DNA from: Bacillus sp. FJAT-18017
GTDB taxonomy: Bacteria > Bacillota > Bacilli > Bacillales > Cytobacillaceae
Reading direction: 5' to 3'
NCBI RefSeq assembly: GCF_001278805.1
Contig: NZ_CP012602.1
Coordinates: 537,001 to 601,000, forward strand
Length of the DNA stretch: 64,000 nucleotides
The notes below the pieces were generated by a model that was not told where the DNA came from, searched no databases, and worked only from the letters and a program-made list of their open reading frames with translations. The translations under genes and the position numbers were made by a program. Position 1 is the first letter of the stretch. Each line of letters opens with the position of its first letter. Positions 46,538 to 54,317 of the stretch are shown one piece after another.

Positions 46538-46885
46538 ATGGAAATAATTAACCCTGAAGAAACAGCACCTGTGTGTGAAGACCATTGCAATACTGAAAAC
46601 TCTGCCCGAAAAAGCCATCATTCCGAGAAGACGAAATCAAATCTTATTACAAGGTTAAATCGTATTGAGGGGCAGATCCGAGGCATTAAAGGCCTTATTG
46701 ACAAGGATACGTATTGTGATGATGTCATTACACAAATTTCGGCAACACAGGCCGCTCTGAATTCCGTCGCAAAAATCCTGCTTGAAGGACATATGAAAAG
46801 CTGTGTTGTTGAACGCATCCAGGAAGGCGATCACGAGGTTGTTGATGAGCTGCTAGTTACCATTCAAAGGCTCATGAAAAAATAA
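46538..46885 (+). CDS. csoR: Copper-sensing transcriptional repressor CsoR
   Basis: A 115-residue all-helical repressor. The Cu(I) ligands C60, H85 and C89 (DTYCDDVITQ..., EGHMKSCVV) are all present, the set that defines copper-sensing members of the CsoR/RcnR family. An N-terminal extension of about 30 residues carries extra Cys and His (VCEDHC, SHHSE) that could also bind metal. Ribosome site GTGAGGAGG lies 7-8 nt upstream. It heads csoR-copZ-copA, and operators for it are seen before csoR and before copA. Confidence 0.95.
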   Translation: MEIINPEETAPVCEDHCNTENSARKSHHSEKTKSNLITRLNRIEGQIRGIKGLIDKDTYCDDVITQISATQAALNSVAKILLEGHMKSCVVERIQEGDHEVVDELLVTIQRLMKK

Positions 46886-46912: not shown

Positions 46913-47119
46913 ATGGAAAAAACATTATTGAATGTAGAAGGTATGTCTTGCGGACATTGCGTTAAGGCAGTTGAAGGCAGCGTAGGCAAGCTGGATGGTG
47001 TGGAGCGTGTCCTTGTTGACCTTAGCGCCAAAACAGTTGCAGTCGAGTACAATAACGATAGCGTTTCGTTGGACGAAATTAAGGAAACAATTGAAGACCA
47101 GGGCTACGATGTAGTCTAA
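46913..47119 (+). CDS. copZ: Copper chaperone CopZ
   Basis: A 68-residue heavy-metal-associated domain protein with the Cu(I) motif GMSCGHC (C13, C16) and the family end DQGYDVV. It carries Cu(I) in the cytoplasm and delivers it to CopA and CsoR. It lies 27 bp after csoR and has GAGGGGAAG upstream. A structured spacer with a terminator and a second CsoR operator separates it from copA. Confidence 0.96.
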   Translation: MEKTLLNVEGMSCGHCVKAVEGSVGKLDGVERVLVDLSAKTVAVEYNNDSVSLDEIKETIEDQGYDVV

Positions 47120-47210: not shown

Positions 47211-47230
47211 TATACCCTATTGGGGTATGG
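47211..47230. promoter_or_regulatory. CsoR operator before copA
   Basis: TATACCCTATTGGGGTATGG matches the known CsoR operator pattern (TACCC...GGGGTATGG) closely and lies 14 bp before the copA start. It implies that copA has its own copper-controlled promoter in addition to read-through from csoR-copZ. Confidence 0.8.
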
Positions 47231-47243
47231 GGGAGTTGAGAAT

Positions 47244-49682
47244 ATGAGTACGGGTACAGCATTAGAAAAACTAGCAAAAGAAACGACGATGCAAATTACC
47301 GGAATGACGTGTGCCGCCTGTGCAGTCCGGATTGAAAAAGGCTTAAACAAGCTTGAGGGCGTACATGAAGCGAACGTTAACCTTGCACTCGAGAGGGCTT
47401 CGGTCAAATTTGACCCGGCTGTCACTAACCTTGCCAGCCTTGAAAACAAGGTCCGGAATCTTGGCTATGATGTCGTAGCCGAGAAAAAGGAGTTCGATAT
47501 CACAGGAATGACGTGTGCCGCTTGTTCGACCAGAATTGAGAAAGGCCTCAACAAGATGGACGGCATTACCAAGGCGAATGTCAATCTTGCTCTTGAAAAA
47601 GCATCAGTTGAATACAATCCTTCCGTTCTTTCGGAACGCGATATTATTAAAAAGGTTGAGGCGCTTGGCTACGGTGCAGCTTTGAAGGAAGAGGCAAACG
47701 AGCAGGCAACAGCGGACTATCGCCAGCGGGAGATTGAAAACCAGACAGGGAAATTTATTTTCTCGCTCATCCTGTCCTTGCCGCTCCTATGGTCAATGGT
47801 TGGTCACTTTTCGTTTACCTCGTTCATATATGTACCGAATATGTTCATGAATCCGTGGGTACAGCTTGCGCTCGCGACACCTGTCCAATTCATAATTGGC
47901 CGCCAGTTCTATGTCGGTGCCTACAAAGCATTGAAAAACGGCAGTGCCAACATGGATGTGCTTGTTGCACTCGGTACGTCGGCAGCCTATTTCTACAGCC
48001 TTTACCTGTCATTTGTATCGCTCGGGGGCAATGCACATTCAGTTGAGCTGTACTATGAAACAAGTGCTGTATTGCTGACGTTGATTATTCTCGGAAAGCT
48101 GTTTGAAGCAAAAGCAAAGGGCCGGTCATCCGAAGCAATCAAGAAATTGATGGGGCTCCAGGCTAAGACTGCAATCGTCGAACGTGACGGGGCAGAGGTT
48201 GAGATTGCTCTTGAAGAAGTACTTGTTGGCGACATCATCCACGTCAAACCAGGCGACAAGATTCCTGTTGATGGACGGATTGTCGAGGGGCAGTCTGCCA
48301 TTGATGAATCGATGCTGACCGGGGAAAGCGTTCCGGTTGATAAAGCAGCAGGAGATGAAGTCATTGGCGCGACAATCAATAAGAACGGTTTTATTAAAAT
48401 TGAAGCAACCAAAGTTGGGCGTGACACAGCCCTGGCGCAGATCATTAAGGTCGTTGAGGAAGCGCAGGGCTCAAAGGCCCCAATCCAACGGTTGGCTGAC
48501 CAGATTTCTGGTATTTTCGTTCCAATCGTTGTCGGAATCGCAGTTGTTACATTCCTTGTCTGGTACTTCTGGGCAGAGCCTGGCAATTTTGCAGAAGCGC
48601 TTGAAAAAATGATTGCTGTGCTTGTAATTGCATGCCCATGCGCACTTGGCCTGGCAACTCCGACCTCGATTATGGCAGGTTCAGGCCGTGCTGCGGAATA
48701 TGGCATCCTGTTCAAGGGCGGGGAACATCTTGAAATGACACATAAAATCGATACAGTCATCCTAGATAAAACCGGTACCGTTACAAATGGAAAGCCTGTT
48801 TTGACAGATGTCATCCTTTCAGGGACTATAGCTGAAAATGAATTTCTTGCGCTTGTTGGTTCTGCCGAAAAGCAATCCGAGCATCCGCTTGCCCAGGCGA
48901 TTGTACAGGGCATCAAAGAAAAAGGCTTGAATTTATCTTCGGGTAGTTCTTTTGAAAACATTCCGGGTTTTGGCATAAAAGCCTCTGTTAGTGGCCGCGA
49001 GTTGCTAATTGGGACCCGTAAACTAATGGCAAAGCATGGTGTGAACAGCGAAGGTGCTTTTGAAAAAATGGATGCACTAGAGCGCGAAGGAAAAACGGCA
49101 ATGCTTGTTGCAATTGATGGCCAGTATGCTGGAATCGTTGCAGTTGCTGATACAATCAAGGACACTTCGAAGGCGGCGATCAAACGCCTGAAAGATATGG
49201 GCCTTGACGTAATCATGATTACAGGCGATAACACTCAGACTGCGAAGGCAATCGCTTCCCAGGCGGGAATTGACAACGTTATTGCTGAAGTTCTTCCTGA
49301 AGGTAAGGCAGAGGAAGTGAAAAAGCTCCAAGCTGCCGGTAAAAAAGTTGCGATGGTCGGTGATGGCATCAATGATGCCCCTGCCCTAGCAGTCGCTGAC
49401 ATCGGAATGGCGATTGGAACAGGTACGGACGTTGCCATGGAGGCTGCTGACATTACCTTGATTCGGGGCGACTTGAACAGTATTGCCGATGCTATCTTTA
49501 TGAGTAAGCTGACTATCCGCAACATTAAACAGAACCTGTTCTGGGCATTTGGCTACAATACACTGGGCATCCCAATTGCGGCCCTTGGCTTCCTCGCTCC
49601 ATGGCTCGCGGGTGCTGCGATGGCGTTCAGTTCCGTATCAGTCGTTCTGAATGCACTCCGCCTCCAAAAGGTGAAACTGTAG
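47244..49682 (+). CDS. copA: Copper-exporting P1B-type ATPase CopA
   Basis: An 812-residue Cu(I) efflux ATPase. Two N-terminal metal-binding domains have GMTCAAC (C23/C26 and C91/C94); eight membrane segments follow; the ion motif is CPC ([13 protein letters not shown]), the phosphorylation site DKTGT, and the hinge [10 protein letters not shown]. Start 47244 ([10 protein letters not shown]) has GGGAG upstream; an in-frame TTG at 47220 lies inside the CsoR operator and is rejected. It pumps Cu(I) out of the cytoplasm, where the secreted CueP and PCYCGC proteins and the Csp-type protein could handle it. Very secure. Confidence 0.97.
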
Positions 49683-49983: not shown

Positions 49984-50424
49984 TTATTTTTCAAGTTCAC
50001 CGGCCCAATTCTCCATTCCTCCCAAGAGATTTGAGACATGCTGATAACCTTCCTGGATAAGGAATTCACTGCTCGAATCACCCTTACCGTCTTCGTCCGA
50101 CACTAAGATAATGTGCTTATTGGGATCCAATTCGGCAAGCCGATTCTGTAACTCATAAAAGGGGACGTTGATTGCACCTGGAATATGTCCATTTTGATAT
50201 AATTCAAACTCCCGTAAATCGATTATCACCGTATCCGGATGGTTAATACTTTTTTCGAGGTCTGAAGAATTTATTGGATGGACTCCTACTTCCCCGGCGT
50301 CCCCCATACCAGGCATGCCTTCGTGGCTCCCATTTGACGAAATGGCCTTATTAACTCCTACAACTACATAAACAATAAACAAAATGCTTACCATACCGAT
50401 GATTATAGATAGTTTTTTATTCAT
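49984..50424 (-). CDS. Membrane-anchored rhodanese-like protein lacking the catalytic Cys
   Basis: A 146-residue protein with an N-terminal membrane anchor (~5-28), a Gly/Met-rich linker (GSHEGMPGMGDAGEVG) and a rhodanese domain (~50-146: VIIDLREFELYQNGHIPGAINVP, LLGGMENW). The active-site loop, normally a Cys followed by xxGxRS, reads LVSDEDGKGDSS, so no sulfur-transfer Cys is present and the domain is probably not an active sulfurtransferase. There is no TGA at that position, unlike the other genes in this region. The Met-rich linker may bind Cu(I), in keeping with the copper neighbours. Ribosome site GGAGG 5 nt upstream. Confidence 0.85.
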   Translation of the reverse strand: MNKKLSIIIGMVSILFIVYVVVGVNKAISSNGSHEGMPGMGDAGEVGVHPINSSDLEKSINHPDTVIIDLREFELYQNGHIPGAINVPFYELQNRLAELDPNKHIILVSDEDGKGDSSSEFLIQEGYQHVSNLLGGMENWAGELEK

Positions 50425-50501
50425 GCTAACCTCCTTTATTGAATTAACCGTTTACTTCATCCTCTAAGTGGTATCAGGAAAAAGTAGAGGAGGTGAAACG
50501 G

Positions 50502-50837
50502 ATGGAAAACCAACAATTTTCAGATTGCATCGAAGCATGTTTCGAATGCATGGAAGCCTGCAATCATTGTTATGATGCATGCCTTCGAGAAATGGATGTC
50601 AAGATGATGGCAGAATGCATCCGCACCGACCGGGAATGTGCAGACATCTGTGCATTTGCCATTAAAGCTATGCAGTCGAACTCACCTTTTGTAAAAGAAA
50701 TTTGTGATCTCTGTGCGGAAATCTGTGAAGCGTGCGGACGGGAATGTGAAAAGCATGCCGATCATCACGAACATTGCAGGCAATGCGCCGAAGCTTGCTT
50801 CCGCTGTGCCGAGGCCTGCCGGAAAATGGCTGCTTAA
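50502..50837 (+). CDS. Cys-rich four-helix protein (Csp-type copper storage, DUF326)
   Basis: A 111-residue protein with Cys recurring on one face of predicted helices: CIEACFECMEACNHCYDAC, CIRTDRECADIC, CDLCAEICEACGRECEKH and CRQCAEACFRCAEAC. This is the pattern of copper storage proteins that hold many Cu(I) ions inside a four-helix bundle. No signal peptide, so it is a cytosolic form. The start at 50502 is favoured (AGAGGAGGTG 7 nt upstream; an in-frame GTG at 50493 is inside the site). Copper context is clear from csoR-copZ-copA nearby. A terminator follows. Confidence 0.88.
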   Translation: MENQQFSDCIEACFECMEACNHCYDACLREMDVKMMAECIRTDRECADICAFAIKAMQSNSPFVKEICDLCAEICEACGRECEKHADHHEHCRQCAEACFRCAEACRKMAA

Positions 50838-51243: not shown

Positions 51244-51699
51244 CTAATTTGCAGGTACTGGTGTCGGTGTCCCTTCACCCAAATTCGAATAGTGGTCTAC
51301 AATCGTTTCGTTAATTTCCTTTAGGCCTTTACCTTCTTGACGCATCATGCTCGCCTCCCGGGCGATGTTTACGCACGTGTCTCAAGCGGTGCCATGAGGA
51401 TCCCATTCAGTTACGGTATTGCCGTCACCCATTCCTTTAACAAAGCAATCAAGGTTGCTTTCGTGGCCATCGTCCATTCCGCAGCCGCAATAGCAGGGAG
51501 ATGCGGCTAAAGCCTCAGGGTATTTGGCAGCCAAAAGGTAGGTTTCCTGAACCTTATCCGGGCTCTGTAAAACATAATCCGGAAGGGGAGTGTGCTTTGC
51601 ATCGAGCTCAAGGTTTTCTGTATCCAAAGAGCTGCAGGCAGAGATGATGCCAATTGCCAGGATTGAAAACATCAGTAACAAATATCTGGATAATTTCAT
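51244..51699 (-). CDS. PCYCGC-motif lipoprotein 1 with in-frame TGA (candidate selenoprotein)
   Basis: A 151-codon frame with one TGA at codon 106 (51382-51384). The N-terminus is a lipoprotein signal ending in SACSS; the middle holds the defining motif ASPCYCGCGMDDGHESNLDCF. The TGA follows EWDPHGTA and is followed by DTCVNIAREASMMRQEG, KGLKEINETIVDHYS, GEGTPTPVPAN and TAG. Standard family members have Cys at the TGA position, forming CxxC; here it would be UxxC, a classic redox selenoprotein motif. A hairpin lies 21 nt after the TGA. The terminator lies beyond the TAG. The protein is probably membrane-anchored outside the cell; a metal or redox role is likely from the Cys pattern and copper neighbours. 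Confidence 0.82.
51351..51365 (-). promoter_or_regulatory. Candidate SECIS hairpin in PCYCGC gene 1
   Basis: In the mRNA, UCGCC pairs with GGCGA around the loop CGGGA, starting 22 nt after the UGA, with G at loop position 2. The 16-nt block ATCGCCCGGGAGGCG is identical in PCYCGC gene 2 even at wobble positions, although flanking codons differ. Confidence 0.6.
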
Positions 51700-51861: not shown

Positions 51862-52320
51862 TTAGTTTGCTGGGACAGGTGTCGGAGTTCCTTCACCATA
51901 GGATGAATATTCTTCAACAATAGCTTCGTGGATTTCCTTCAGGCTTTTACCGTCTTGTTTCATTTCTACCGCCTCCCGGGCGATATTGACACAAATGTCT
52001 CAAGCGGTGCCATGCGGATCCCATTCAGTTACAGCGAGGTCGGAATCCATTCCCTTAATGAAGCAGTCCAAATTACTTTCATGGCCGGATCCGGTGCCAC
52101 AGCTGCAATAGCATGGAACAGATGCAAGTGCATCGGGATGCTGTGCGGCCATAACATATGTTTCTTGCACTTTATCAGGTGTCTGGAGAACATAATCTGG
52201 CAAGGCAGTATGCTTCGGATCCAATGTCAGCTCTTCAGTTGATGATTGCGAACTGCAGGCAGAAATGATGCCGATGGCCAGGATTGAAAACATCAGCAGC
52301 AAGTATCTAGATAATTTCAT
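51862..52320 (-). CDS. PCYCGC-motif lipoprotein 2 with in-frame TGA (candidate selenoprotein)
   Basis: A paralogue of the preceding gene (152 codons) with TGA at codon 107 (52000-52002). Lipoprotein signal to SACSS; core ASVPCYCSCGTGSGHESNLDCF; EWDPHGTA before the TGA and DICVNIAREAVEMKQDG, KSLKEIHEAIVEEYS, GEGTPTPVPAN after it, then TAA. The UxxC position and the downstream hairpin are conserved with copy 1. The copies differ at many silent sites, so the duplication is old and both have been kept as coding sequence past the TGA. In copy 2 one Cys of the PCYCGC motif is replaced by Ser (PCYCSC). Confidence 0.82.
51969..51983 (-). promoter_or_regulatory. Candidate SECIS hairpin in PCYCGC gene 2
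   Basis: UCGCC pairs with GGCGG around loop CGGGA (outer pair U-G), starting 22 nt after the UGA. Same position and sequence as in gene 1. Confidence 0.6.
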
Positions 52321-53524: not shown

Positions 53525-53715
53525 CTTAAGCCCCCATGTAAAAACGAGTGATAAGTGTTTACAAAAGGATTTACTAAACGGAATTGGGGCCTGGAGGGTG
53601 AGAATCGTCGAGAGAAGGATTTACTAGACCACCAATAATTTGAAGCAGTCGGCCCGACAGGATTGATTTTATCGACCTTTTGAAACAGCTTACCTGTTTC
53701 GTTTTGCGACAAGAA

Positions 53716-53741
53716 AGGGCCCAGTACATCAGCTGGGCCCT
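53716..53741 (-). terminator. Terminator of the cueP gene
   Basis: AGGGCCCAG and CTGGGCCCT form a perfect 9-bp stem. On the minus strand it is followed by TTCTTG. It lies 15 bp beyond the TAG that is reached by reading through the TGA. Confidence 0.8.
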
Positions 53742-53756
53742 CTATTTATTGTGCTG

Positions 53757-54317
53757 CTATAGTAATTGCATGGTTGTAATACAGGTGATATCTCCCTGGG
53801 AAGTAGACAGCTGGGATTCTGTTACTTTTCCGTCGTGCTCAATCTTTACATTGTATGTTTTATTCCGGGGCAGCCATAAATCAATGAACCCGTTTGATCC
53901 GGATTTCAACGTTTTGTCTACTACAATATTGCCTTCATTATCTTTGATGACAACATCAAATTCCTCATTCATGAGCTCTCCCTGACAACCTGCCAGGCTA
54001 TGTGTACCTCATTCATGGGTTTGGCTGACATAAGGGGCAATTGATACAAAGAATTGGTCTGCTGGTAACTCATGAACAGTTTCAGTTCCATCCGTTCCCT
54101 TAACGATAAGCTGGTCAGATGTAACTGAAGCAGCTTCGACTTCTGTTTTACCTGAACTGATATCGGCTAATAATTCCTGAACAGTAGGGGTTTCACTCTG
54201 ATTGGCAGCTGTTTCGTTAGCTGAGTTCTCAACTTTGGTGCTGTCTTCACCGCAGCCGGCCAGGATGATGCCAAGAAACAAAGCAACTGTAAAAACCTTA
54301 AGCTTCACCAAATTCAC
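53757..54317 (-). CDS. cueP: CueP-family copper-binding lipoprotein with in-frame TGA at a copper-ligand Cys (candidate selenoprotein)
   Basis: A 186-codon frame with one TGA at codon 103 (54009-54011). CueP is an extracytoplasmic Cu(I) protein with three conserved Cys. The lipoprotein signal ends ILAGCGED; PYVSQTHE precedes the TGA; GTHSLAGCQGELMNEEF follows, then NGFIDLWLPRNKTYNV and GDITCITTMQLL, all family hallmarks. In ordinary CueP the segment is THDC..HSL.TCQGEL, so the TGA replaces the first metal-ligand Cys while the other two remain. A good SECIS-like hairpin begins 12 nt after the TGA. A gene caller would split it into a 102-residue protein and a separate 71-residue ORF from an internal ATG at 53972. 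Ribosome site AAGGAGTGA upstream. Confidence 0.85.
53981..53997 (-). promoter_or_regulatory. Candidate SECIS hairpin in cueP
   Basis: In the mRNA, CCUGGCA pairs with UGUCAGG (7 bp, one G-U) around the loop GGU, which begins 19 nt after the UGA. The GGU apical loop and spacing closely resemble the E. coli fdhF SECIS. This is the strongest of the four hairpins. Confidence 0.7.

What the first reader, a model, noticed from the sequence alone, without database searches (positions are those of the whole stretch)
53757..54317. CueP homologue with in-frame TGA replacing a copper-ligand cysteine, with a fdhF-like SECIS hairpin
Seen: the minus-strand frame has a single TGA between THE and GTHSLAGCQGEL, and 83 codons of clear CueP sequence follow to a TAG and a terminator just beyond it. 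Known: CueP binds Cu(I) through three conserved Cys; this position is the first of them. The mRNA just after the TGA folds into a 7-bp hairpin with a GGU loop 19 nt away, as in known bacterial SECIS elements. Inference: this is a copper-binding selenoprotein, where Sec would bind Cu(I) more tightly than Cys. I am not aware of a described CueP selenoprotein but could not search.
Basis: partly seen in the sequence, partly recalled or inferred. Interest (0 to 1): 0.95.

Follow-up and report, generated by a model that had tools for sequence, protein, structure and literature searches.

The report
Selenocysteine form of copper-binder CueP
In this bacterium and 116 related genomes, the gene for the copper-binding protein CueP carries an in-frame UGA codon exactly where other CueP proteins have a conserved cysteine, followed each time by a matching RNA hairpin, so the protein likely contains the selenium amino acid selenocysteine at its predicted copper site, a form of CueP that is absent from the published selenoprotein inventory that was checked.

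Summary
The minus-strand CueP frame (54317-53757) has one TGA (54011-54009) in place of the first of three conserved Cys. The genome (one contig) has selA, selB, tRNA-Sec(UCA) and a selD that itself carries a TGA. In relatives the column alternates: 123 TGA copies (117 genomes, 26 genera, 13 families) against 73 Cys rows (one counted twice). In 123 of 123 TGA copies a 7-bp hairpin with GGU loop starts 12 nt after the TGA, with coupled synonymous changes; 4 of 73 Cys rows keep all 7 pairs. TGA copies occur almost only where Sec machinery is found. Pseudogene, sequencing error and chance are excluded; Sec decoding is the best reading (about 0.96). That Sec binds Cu(I) is inferred. A 2026 inventory of 119 selenoprotein families/subfamilies lacks CueP; searches of open-licence papers found no CueP selenoprotein. 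The same gene cluster holds two further TGA genes (PCYCGC family, already listed as selenoproteins). Against over-reading: copper genes are rarely beside cueP elsewhere (4 of 72 loci), hairpin stability alone is unremarkable, no Rfam SECIS model hits, and a tree-aware association test was inconclusive.

The parts
53757..54317 (-). cueP frame with in-frame TGA read as Sec (186 aa; likely real start GTG at 54308); lipoprotein-type CueP
54009..54011 (-). TGA codon, residue 103, at the first conserved Cys of CueP
53981..53997 (-). SECIS-like hairpin: 7 bp, GGU loop at 53990-53988, 12-28 nt after the TGA
   Evidence: 123 of 123 TGA copies
54252..54263 (-). lipobox LAGC, lipidated Cys predicted at residue 22
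   Evidence: sequence; motif recalled
53714..53743 (-). terminator-like hairpin (11 bp predicted, T-rich end) beyond the TAG stop
51862..52320 (-). PCYCGC lipoprotein gene with in-frame TGA (residue 107), predicted selenoprotein of a family already listed
51244..51699 (-). tandem paralogue of the PCYCGC gene with in-frame TGA (residue 106)
46538..46885 (+). CsoR-type metal-sensitive repressor (PF02583)
46913..47119 (+). CopZ-like HMA domain protein
47220..49682 (+). CopA-type P1B ATPase (E1-E2 ATPase, two HMA)
50493..50837 (+). Cys-rich DUF326 protein (four-helix copper-storage type; name recalled)

Best explanation
This cueP gene carries an in-frame UGA at the first conserved cysteine of CueP followed by a conserved hairpin, in a genome with selA, selB, selD and tRNA-Sec, so its mRNA is very likely decoded as a selenoprotein whose selenocysteine is predicted to take the place of a copper-ligand thiol. 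Likely working: SelB with Sec-tRNA(UCA) would bind the GGU-loop hairpin 12-28 nt behind the UGA and insert Sec instead of ending translation; the lipoprotein would be anchored on the outer face of the membrane, where Sec103 with Cys111 and Cys179 would bind Cu(I) (or hold a redox-active selenenylsulfide that handles copper), more tightly or faster than the all-Cys form. Shown by sequence: TGA/Cys alternation, hairpin conservation and coupled changes, the presence of the machinery. Inferred: Sec insertion itself, membrane anchoring, copper chemistry.
For: CueP domain intact across the TGA; the model (Cys for Sec) matches solved CueP 4gqz (TM 0.71/0.84). Machinery: tRNA-Sec 65.2 bits over cut-off 47, ARAGORN tRNA-SeC(tca), selB 362.8 bits over 242, selA 572.9 over 268, selD 401 over 125 with its own TGA in KAGUGCK. 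Column 103: own genus 8 of 8 genomes have one TGA inside CueP; own family 109 copies in 104 genomes: 91 TGA, 17 Cys, 1 fragment; in the order sample 81 further distinct copies: 32 TGA, 48 Cys, 1 Tyr. Hairpin: 123 of 123 TGA copies with 7 of 7 pairs and GGU, against 4 of 73 Cys rows with 7 pairs; Leu codon TTG goes with CAA (110) and CTG with CAG (13), never mixed. Synonymous identity of codons 106-112 is 0.975 in 89 TGA copies, best non-overlapping window 0.724. Machinery: family, TGA 86 selB+ / 1 selB- (a 66% complete genome), Cys-only 7 / 9, p 4e-8; outside the family, 30 of 30 genomes with TGA at this column are selA+.
Against: No experiment. No Rfam SECIS family matches. MFE is ordinary against synonymous recodings. 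A tree-aware test of TGA against machinery has only 1-2 informative pairs (same direction in nearly all pairings), so inconclusive. Some Sec-using genomes keep Cys forms (7 in the family, 16 outside), so Sec is not indispensable. cueP is rarely beside copper genes elsewhere (4 of 72 loci). One TGA copy in a Sec-using genome is also broken by a TAA (G537, L198).
Confidence: 0.9

Rival explanations
1. Sec is inserted, but its job is redox catalysis (Cu(II) reduction or peroxide removal, thiol exchange) rather than tight Cu(I) binding.
For: Many selenoproteins are thought to be redox proteins (PMC13188914, parts 1 and 2 of section 7); a direct ROS-scavenging activity of Salmonella CueP is named in the title of a reference (paper not held).
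Against: No UxxC/CxxU motif: Sec and the next Cys are 8 residues apart; CueP Cys and His residues are described as the Cu site (PMC7558416 passage); C104S loses the copper resistance that CueP gives in Salmonella (PMC13201067 passage), though that is the second Cys.
Confidence: 0.3
2. UGA is read through by another amino acid (for example Trp by near-cognate decoding) or used mainly as a regulated stop, giving a short and a long product.
For: Six of 120 listed database homologues bear Trp at this column, and a 102-residue first half would be made whenever Sec is lacking.
Against: In the DNA read here the alternative is Cys (72 distinct copies; one decayed copy has Tyr, none Trp); hairpin and Sec machinery track the TGA; TGA is the stop of two other genes of this window, an AdoMet decarboxylase relative and a UvrB-like ORF (UvrB name recalled); the six Trp rows are best read as TGA mistranslated by gene callers (inference).
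Confidence: 0.03
3. The gene is a pseudogene broken by a nonsense mutation, or the TGA is a sequencing error.
For: A mechanical ORF listing gives two fragments.
Against: Same TGA in 117 genomes of 26 genera, downstream half conserved; a truly decayed copy looks different (L194: Tyr at 103, TGA at 111 and a TAG).
Confidence: 0.01
4. The hairpin is only a by-product of protein conservation (SLTGCQG).
For: The peptide is conserved in Cys forms too.
Against: Cys forms with the same or nearly the same peptide use varied codons: 4 of 73 rows keep 7 pairs, loop codon GGT in 22 of 73.
Confidence: 0.01

Closest known systems
CueP of Salmonella (PDB 4gqz) and Cys-form CueP of other bacteria (PF21172, NF038094)
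   Same: Same fold, family scores over cut-off, second and third Cys kept
   Different: First Cys replaced by UGA/Sec; lipoprotein instead of soluble periplasmic protein (lipobox, inferred); below the cut-off of the Salmonella-type model NF038095 (132.5 < 195)
Bacterial selenoproteins with a SECIS just behind the UGA (fdhF, selD and others)
   Same: In-frame UGA, stem-loop with G in a small apical loop, Sec machinery, Cys homologues; AGGU apex shared with E. coli fdhF
   Different: Host protein is a copper binder not listed among 119 families/subfamilies of a 2026 inventory; 3-nt loop as drawn here
CYCXC/PCYCGC selenoproteins (PF13798, OS_HP4)
   Same: Two copies lie beside this cueP, each with UGA and hairpin
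   Different: Unrelated protein family, already listed as predicted selenoprotein
Metal-related selenoproteins: CopZ-family (2Fe-2S) proteins, MbdU, SaoB/SaoC, SO_0444 Cu/Zn efflux transporter (names from PMC13188914)
   Same: Sec in predicted metal-handling proteins
   Different: Other protein families (domain ids of Table 1); not compared here

Membership tests
CueP family (PF21172 / NF038094) | Score over curated family cut-off | tested here: met
   PF21172 147.5 > 27; NF038094 177 > 60
CueP family (PF21172 / NF038094) | CueP fold | tested here: met
   AlphaFold2 model (mean pLDDT 78.5; read with Cys for Sec) matches 4gqz, TM 0.71/0.84
CueP family (PF21172 / NF038094) | Second and third conserved Cys | tested here: met
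   Cys111 and Cys179; Cys in 120 of 120 listed homologues
CueP family, all-Cys form | First conserved position is Cys | tested here: not met
   TGA instead, conserved in 123 copies; hence filed as a Sec variant, not as the all-Cys form
Salmonella-type metallochaperone CueP (NF038095) | Score over the model's cut-off | tested here: not met
   132.5 bits against 195
CueP family (PF21172 / NF038094) | Binds copper | not testable with these tools
   literature on Salmonella CueP only
Bacterial selenoprotein | In-frame TGA with conserved coding sequence on both sides, aligned with Cys in homologues | tested here: met
Bacterial selenoprotein | selA, selB, selD, tRNA-Sec in the genome | tested here: met
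Bacterial selenoprotein | Conserved stem-loop with G in a small apical loop just behind the TGA | tested here: met
   123 of 123 copies; pattern from PMC1088965 passages
Bacterial selenoprotein | Match to a curated SECIS family (Rfam); supporting, not required | tested here: not met
   only a chance-level HLE match, E 0.23
Bacterial selenoprotein | Selenium in the protein | not testable with these tools
   needs 75Se or mass spectrometry
PCYCGC selenoproteins (the two neighbours) | PF13798 over cut-off, TGA in UxxC | tested here: met
   101.4 and 111.7 bits > 25; UDTC and UDIC

The most novel reading that the evidence does not exclude
CueP is a new, widespread selenoprotein family of Bacillaceae and relatives in which selenocysteine itself is a Cu(I) ligand on the cell surface, so that copper handling in these bacteria depends on selenium; in this genome it forms, with two PCYCGC selenoproteins, a selenium-based copper-handling set next to csoR-copZ-copA.
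Probability: 0.55. Interest if true: 0.85.

Novelty: new variant of a known kind. Interest (0 to 1): 0.74.

Why it matters
Most selenoproteins are thought to be redox proteins; a copper-binding protein with Sec at its predicted copper site would be a clear case of selenium used for metal binding and would tie copper handling to selenium supply in a large group of bacteria. It also suggests that ordinary annotation splits or loses many such genes: the best listed database homologue is 58% identical although a genome in a public collection holds a 95% identical TGA form, and no U stood in the 120 proteins returned (the tools may write Cys for Sec, and near relatives of the window may be left out). 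The recurrent Sec/Cys switching (at least 18 changes on one tree), with apparently fossil hairpins in some Cys copies, is a ready natural experiment on why Sec is kept or lost.

Tried and rejected
Hairpin stability: MFE of the 45 nt behind the codon against 300 synonymous recodings gives mean z -0.62 for 71 distinct TGA sequences (4 of 71 at p<0.05) and 0.16 for 16 distinct Cys ones, family copies only: not useful on its own. Rfam: no SECIS hit. Conserved copper neighbourhood: of 72 family loci with up to 3.5 kb on each side (72 of 109 copies; the genus genomes are not among them; some are cut by contig ends), 4 hold a CsoR, CopZ, CopA, DUF326 or PCYCGC relative, so the island is not general. 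Upstream operator: no common 8-mer or 10-base palindrome stood out (best 25 of 106). Plasmids: 23 PLSDB records with CueP relatives, best 52% identical; the residue at column 103 was not tabulated for them. Phylum sample: 10 of 398 genomes match, TGA only in the two of the window's family. Tree-aware association inconclusive. Literature: ten searches; 'CueP' with 'selenoprotein' or with 'selenocysteine' gives the same one unrelated paper; 'CueP' with 'selenium' gives 15 papers, 10 listed, none of whose titles is about a selenium-containing CueP (listing only; 5 not seen). Only open-licence PMC is held, so earlier print elsewhere, or RefSeq records marked as CueP selenoproteins, cannot be excluded.

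Rows dropped: L027 (named duplicate of L024) from the hairpin, codon and tree counts (its row stands in the raw tally: 92 TGA with it, 91 without); L127, L129 (fragment, frame-broken) from the codon table; L128 (lacks the region) from the hairpin counts; L027, L127-L129, L194, L198-L200 and L158-L165 from the tree (184 rows). The 73 Cys rows hold one duplicate (L154 = L200) and 7 copies from outside the order. Four short pieces (G375, two of G392, G396) were not fetched. One search counted G350 as TGA; one search shows its TGA is not at this column. An earlier tree of 189 rows also gave 18 changes.

Full report
What is there. On the minus strand, 54317-53757 is one frame of 186 codons with a single TGA at codon 103 and a TAG end. 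It scores as CueP across the TGA (Pfam 147.5 bits over residues 57-184, NCBIfam CueP_fam 177 over 45-185). A mechanical ORF listing gives two pieces of 102 and 71 aa. The N-terminal stretch ends in LAGC, a lipobox (motif recalled). AAGGAG sits 8 nt before the GTG at 54308, which is the likelier start. A terminator-like hairpin follows the TAG, so the whole frame lies within one transcript by inference.

The position. Among the 120 listed of 1101 database homologues, column 103 is Cys in 114 and Trp in 6, and Cys111 and Cys179 are kept in 120 of 120. It aligns with the first of three Cys in Salmonella CueP, PDB 4gqz (its residue number 96 is recalled). The Trp rows read TH(P/T)W and are probably TGA genes translated under a code with TGA as Trp. 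A predicted model (mean pLDDT 78.5, residues 1-41 mostly under 50) matches 4gqz chains best. A review describes conserved Cys and His on one face of the C-terminal domain as the copper site (PMC7558416, passages), and C104S loses the copper resistance given by CueP in Salmonella (PMC13201067, passages). I saw no text on the first Cys by itself.

Machinery. The window's genome is one contig of 5.27 Mb. It has tRNA-Sec with anticodon TCA, selB, selA and, 0.6 kb from it, selD with its own TGA in KAGUGCK. Sec use in this genome therefore does not rest on cueP alone.

Relatives. All 8 genomes of the genus held have one TGA inside cueP. In the family, 104 of 193 genomes have cueP; of 109 copies read, 91 have TGA at column 103, 17 have Cys (13 TGT, 4 TGC) and 1 lacks the region. 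In a 397-genome sample of the order, 88 genomes have cueP, 76 of them outside the family. Of 85 matches there I read 81 distinct copies (four short pieces left out): 32 TGA, all at column 103, 48 Cys and 1 Tyr. The Tyr copy, L194, has TGA at 111 and a TAG; it is a decayed second copy in a genome without a selA match. Two of the 32 are incomplete (L198, also broken by a TAA; L199, at a contig end). TGA forms span 117 genomes, 26 genera and 13 families; seven families hold both forms and two genomes hold both. In a 398-genome sample of the phylum, 10 genomes match and TGA occurs only in the two of the window's own family.

Hairpin. In all 123 TGA copies bases 12-18 behind the TGA pair with 22-28 around a GGU loop. 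The window's CCTGGCA-GGT-TGTCAGG differs from the common CTTGACA-GGT-TGTCAAG by a T-A to C-G change on both sides and an A-T to G-T change. Across TGA copies Leu codon TTG goes with Gln codon CAA (110) and CTG with CAG (13), never mixed; two copies change A-T to G-C. Cys rows vary: 4 of 73 keep 7 pairs (71% of pairs formed overall, against 32-50% for partners shifted by 1-2 bases). In Cys rows the TTG/CTG and CAA/CAG codons are also associated but less strictly (13, 3 mixed, 6). Cys copies L040, L041, L222 and L239 that keep 7 pairs look like Sec-to-Cys changes with a fossil hairpin (inference). Synonymous identity over codons 106-112 is 0.975 in 89 TGA copies, against 0.724 in the best non-overlapping window and a median window of 0.513. 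A small apical loop with a guanosine, just behind the UGA, is the published bacterial pattern (PMC1088965, passages).

Co-occurrence. In the family selB passes its cut-off in 170 of 193 genomes. Among genomes with cueP, TGA forms: 86 with selB, 1 without (G078, 66% complete); Cys-only: 7 with, 9 without (Fisher p 4e-8, G138 fragment left out). Outside the family, 30 of 30 genomes with TGA at this column have selA; of the genomes without it 16 have selA and 30 do not (G350 moved here). Species are related, so such p-values overstate; a tree-aware test had too few informative pairs. The parsimony count is 18 changes between forms and 19 in machinery.

Surroundings. The window holds csoR-, copZ- and copA-type genes, a rhodanese, a Cys-rich DUF326 protein, two PCYCGC genes and cueP within 8 kb. 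Both PCYCGC genes have an in-frame TGA in UDxC with a hairpin behind it, predicted as UAUCGCC-CGGGA-GGCGGUA in the second and UCGCC-CGGGA-GGCGA in the first; 16 of 16 matches in the 8 genus genomes have one TGA. This family is listed as a predicted selenoprotein (CYCXC, PF13798, UxxC; PMC13188914 Table 1), which independently supports Sec use at this very locus. PCYCGC genes lie within 3 kb of cueP in G000, G003 and G007, 22-30 kb away in G002, G004, G005 and G006 and on another contig in G001; copper genes are within 3.5 kb in 4 of 72 loci of other genera.

Novelty. The 2026 inventory PMC13188914 (Table 1 read in full, in parts 1 and 2 of section 7; part 3 and the rest not read) covers 119 families/subfamilies and does not hold CueP; the word 'CueP' does not occur in its text nor in the deep-Sep paper PMC12013277 or the review PMC9312934 (term searches). 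Full-text searches for CueP with selenoprotein, selenocysteine or selenium listed nothing on this. CueP and selenoproteins are both known kinds; the Sec form of CueP appears new.

Verdict. Sec decoding about 0.96; Sec as a copper ligand or copper-related redox residue is plausible but untested.

Noticed in passing
window 51244-51699 (-) and 51862-52320 (-): Two tandem PCYCGC lipoprotein genes, each with an in-frame TGA followed by 45 further codons; a plain ORF listing stops at the TGA. 16 of 16 matches in the 8 genus genomes have one TGA.
   Followed up: yes
L132 1465-2532 (G000:C1, selD): selD itself carries an in-frame TGA (KAGUGCK) and lies beside selA, on the other strand; selB and tRNA-Sec lie about 0.57 and 0.67 Mb away and about 94 kb from each other.
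   Followed up: partly
L194 (G350): A decayed second cueP copy in a genome without a selA match: Tyr at column 103, TGA at the second Cys and a further TAG.
   Followed up: partly
L040, L041, L222, L239: Cys-form cueP copies that keep all 7 hairpin pairs, apparently fossil SECIS elements after a Sec-to-Cys change.
   Followed up: partly
P0029, P0030, P0046, P0074, P0088, P0095: Database CueP proteins with Trp at the Sec column, probably TGA genes translated under a TGA=Trp code by gene callers.
   Followed up: partly
G182 (loci L071, L077, L105): One genome with three cueP copies, all with TGA.
   Followed up: no
window 49984-50424 (-): A short rhodanese-domain protein with an N-terminal hydrophobic stretch inside the copper cluster.
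   Followed up: no
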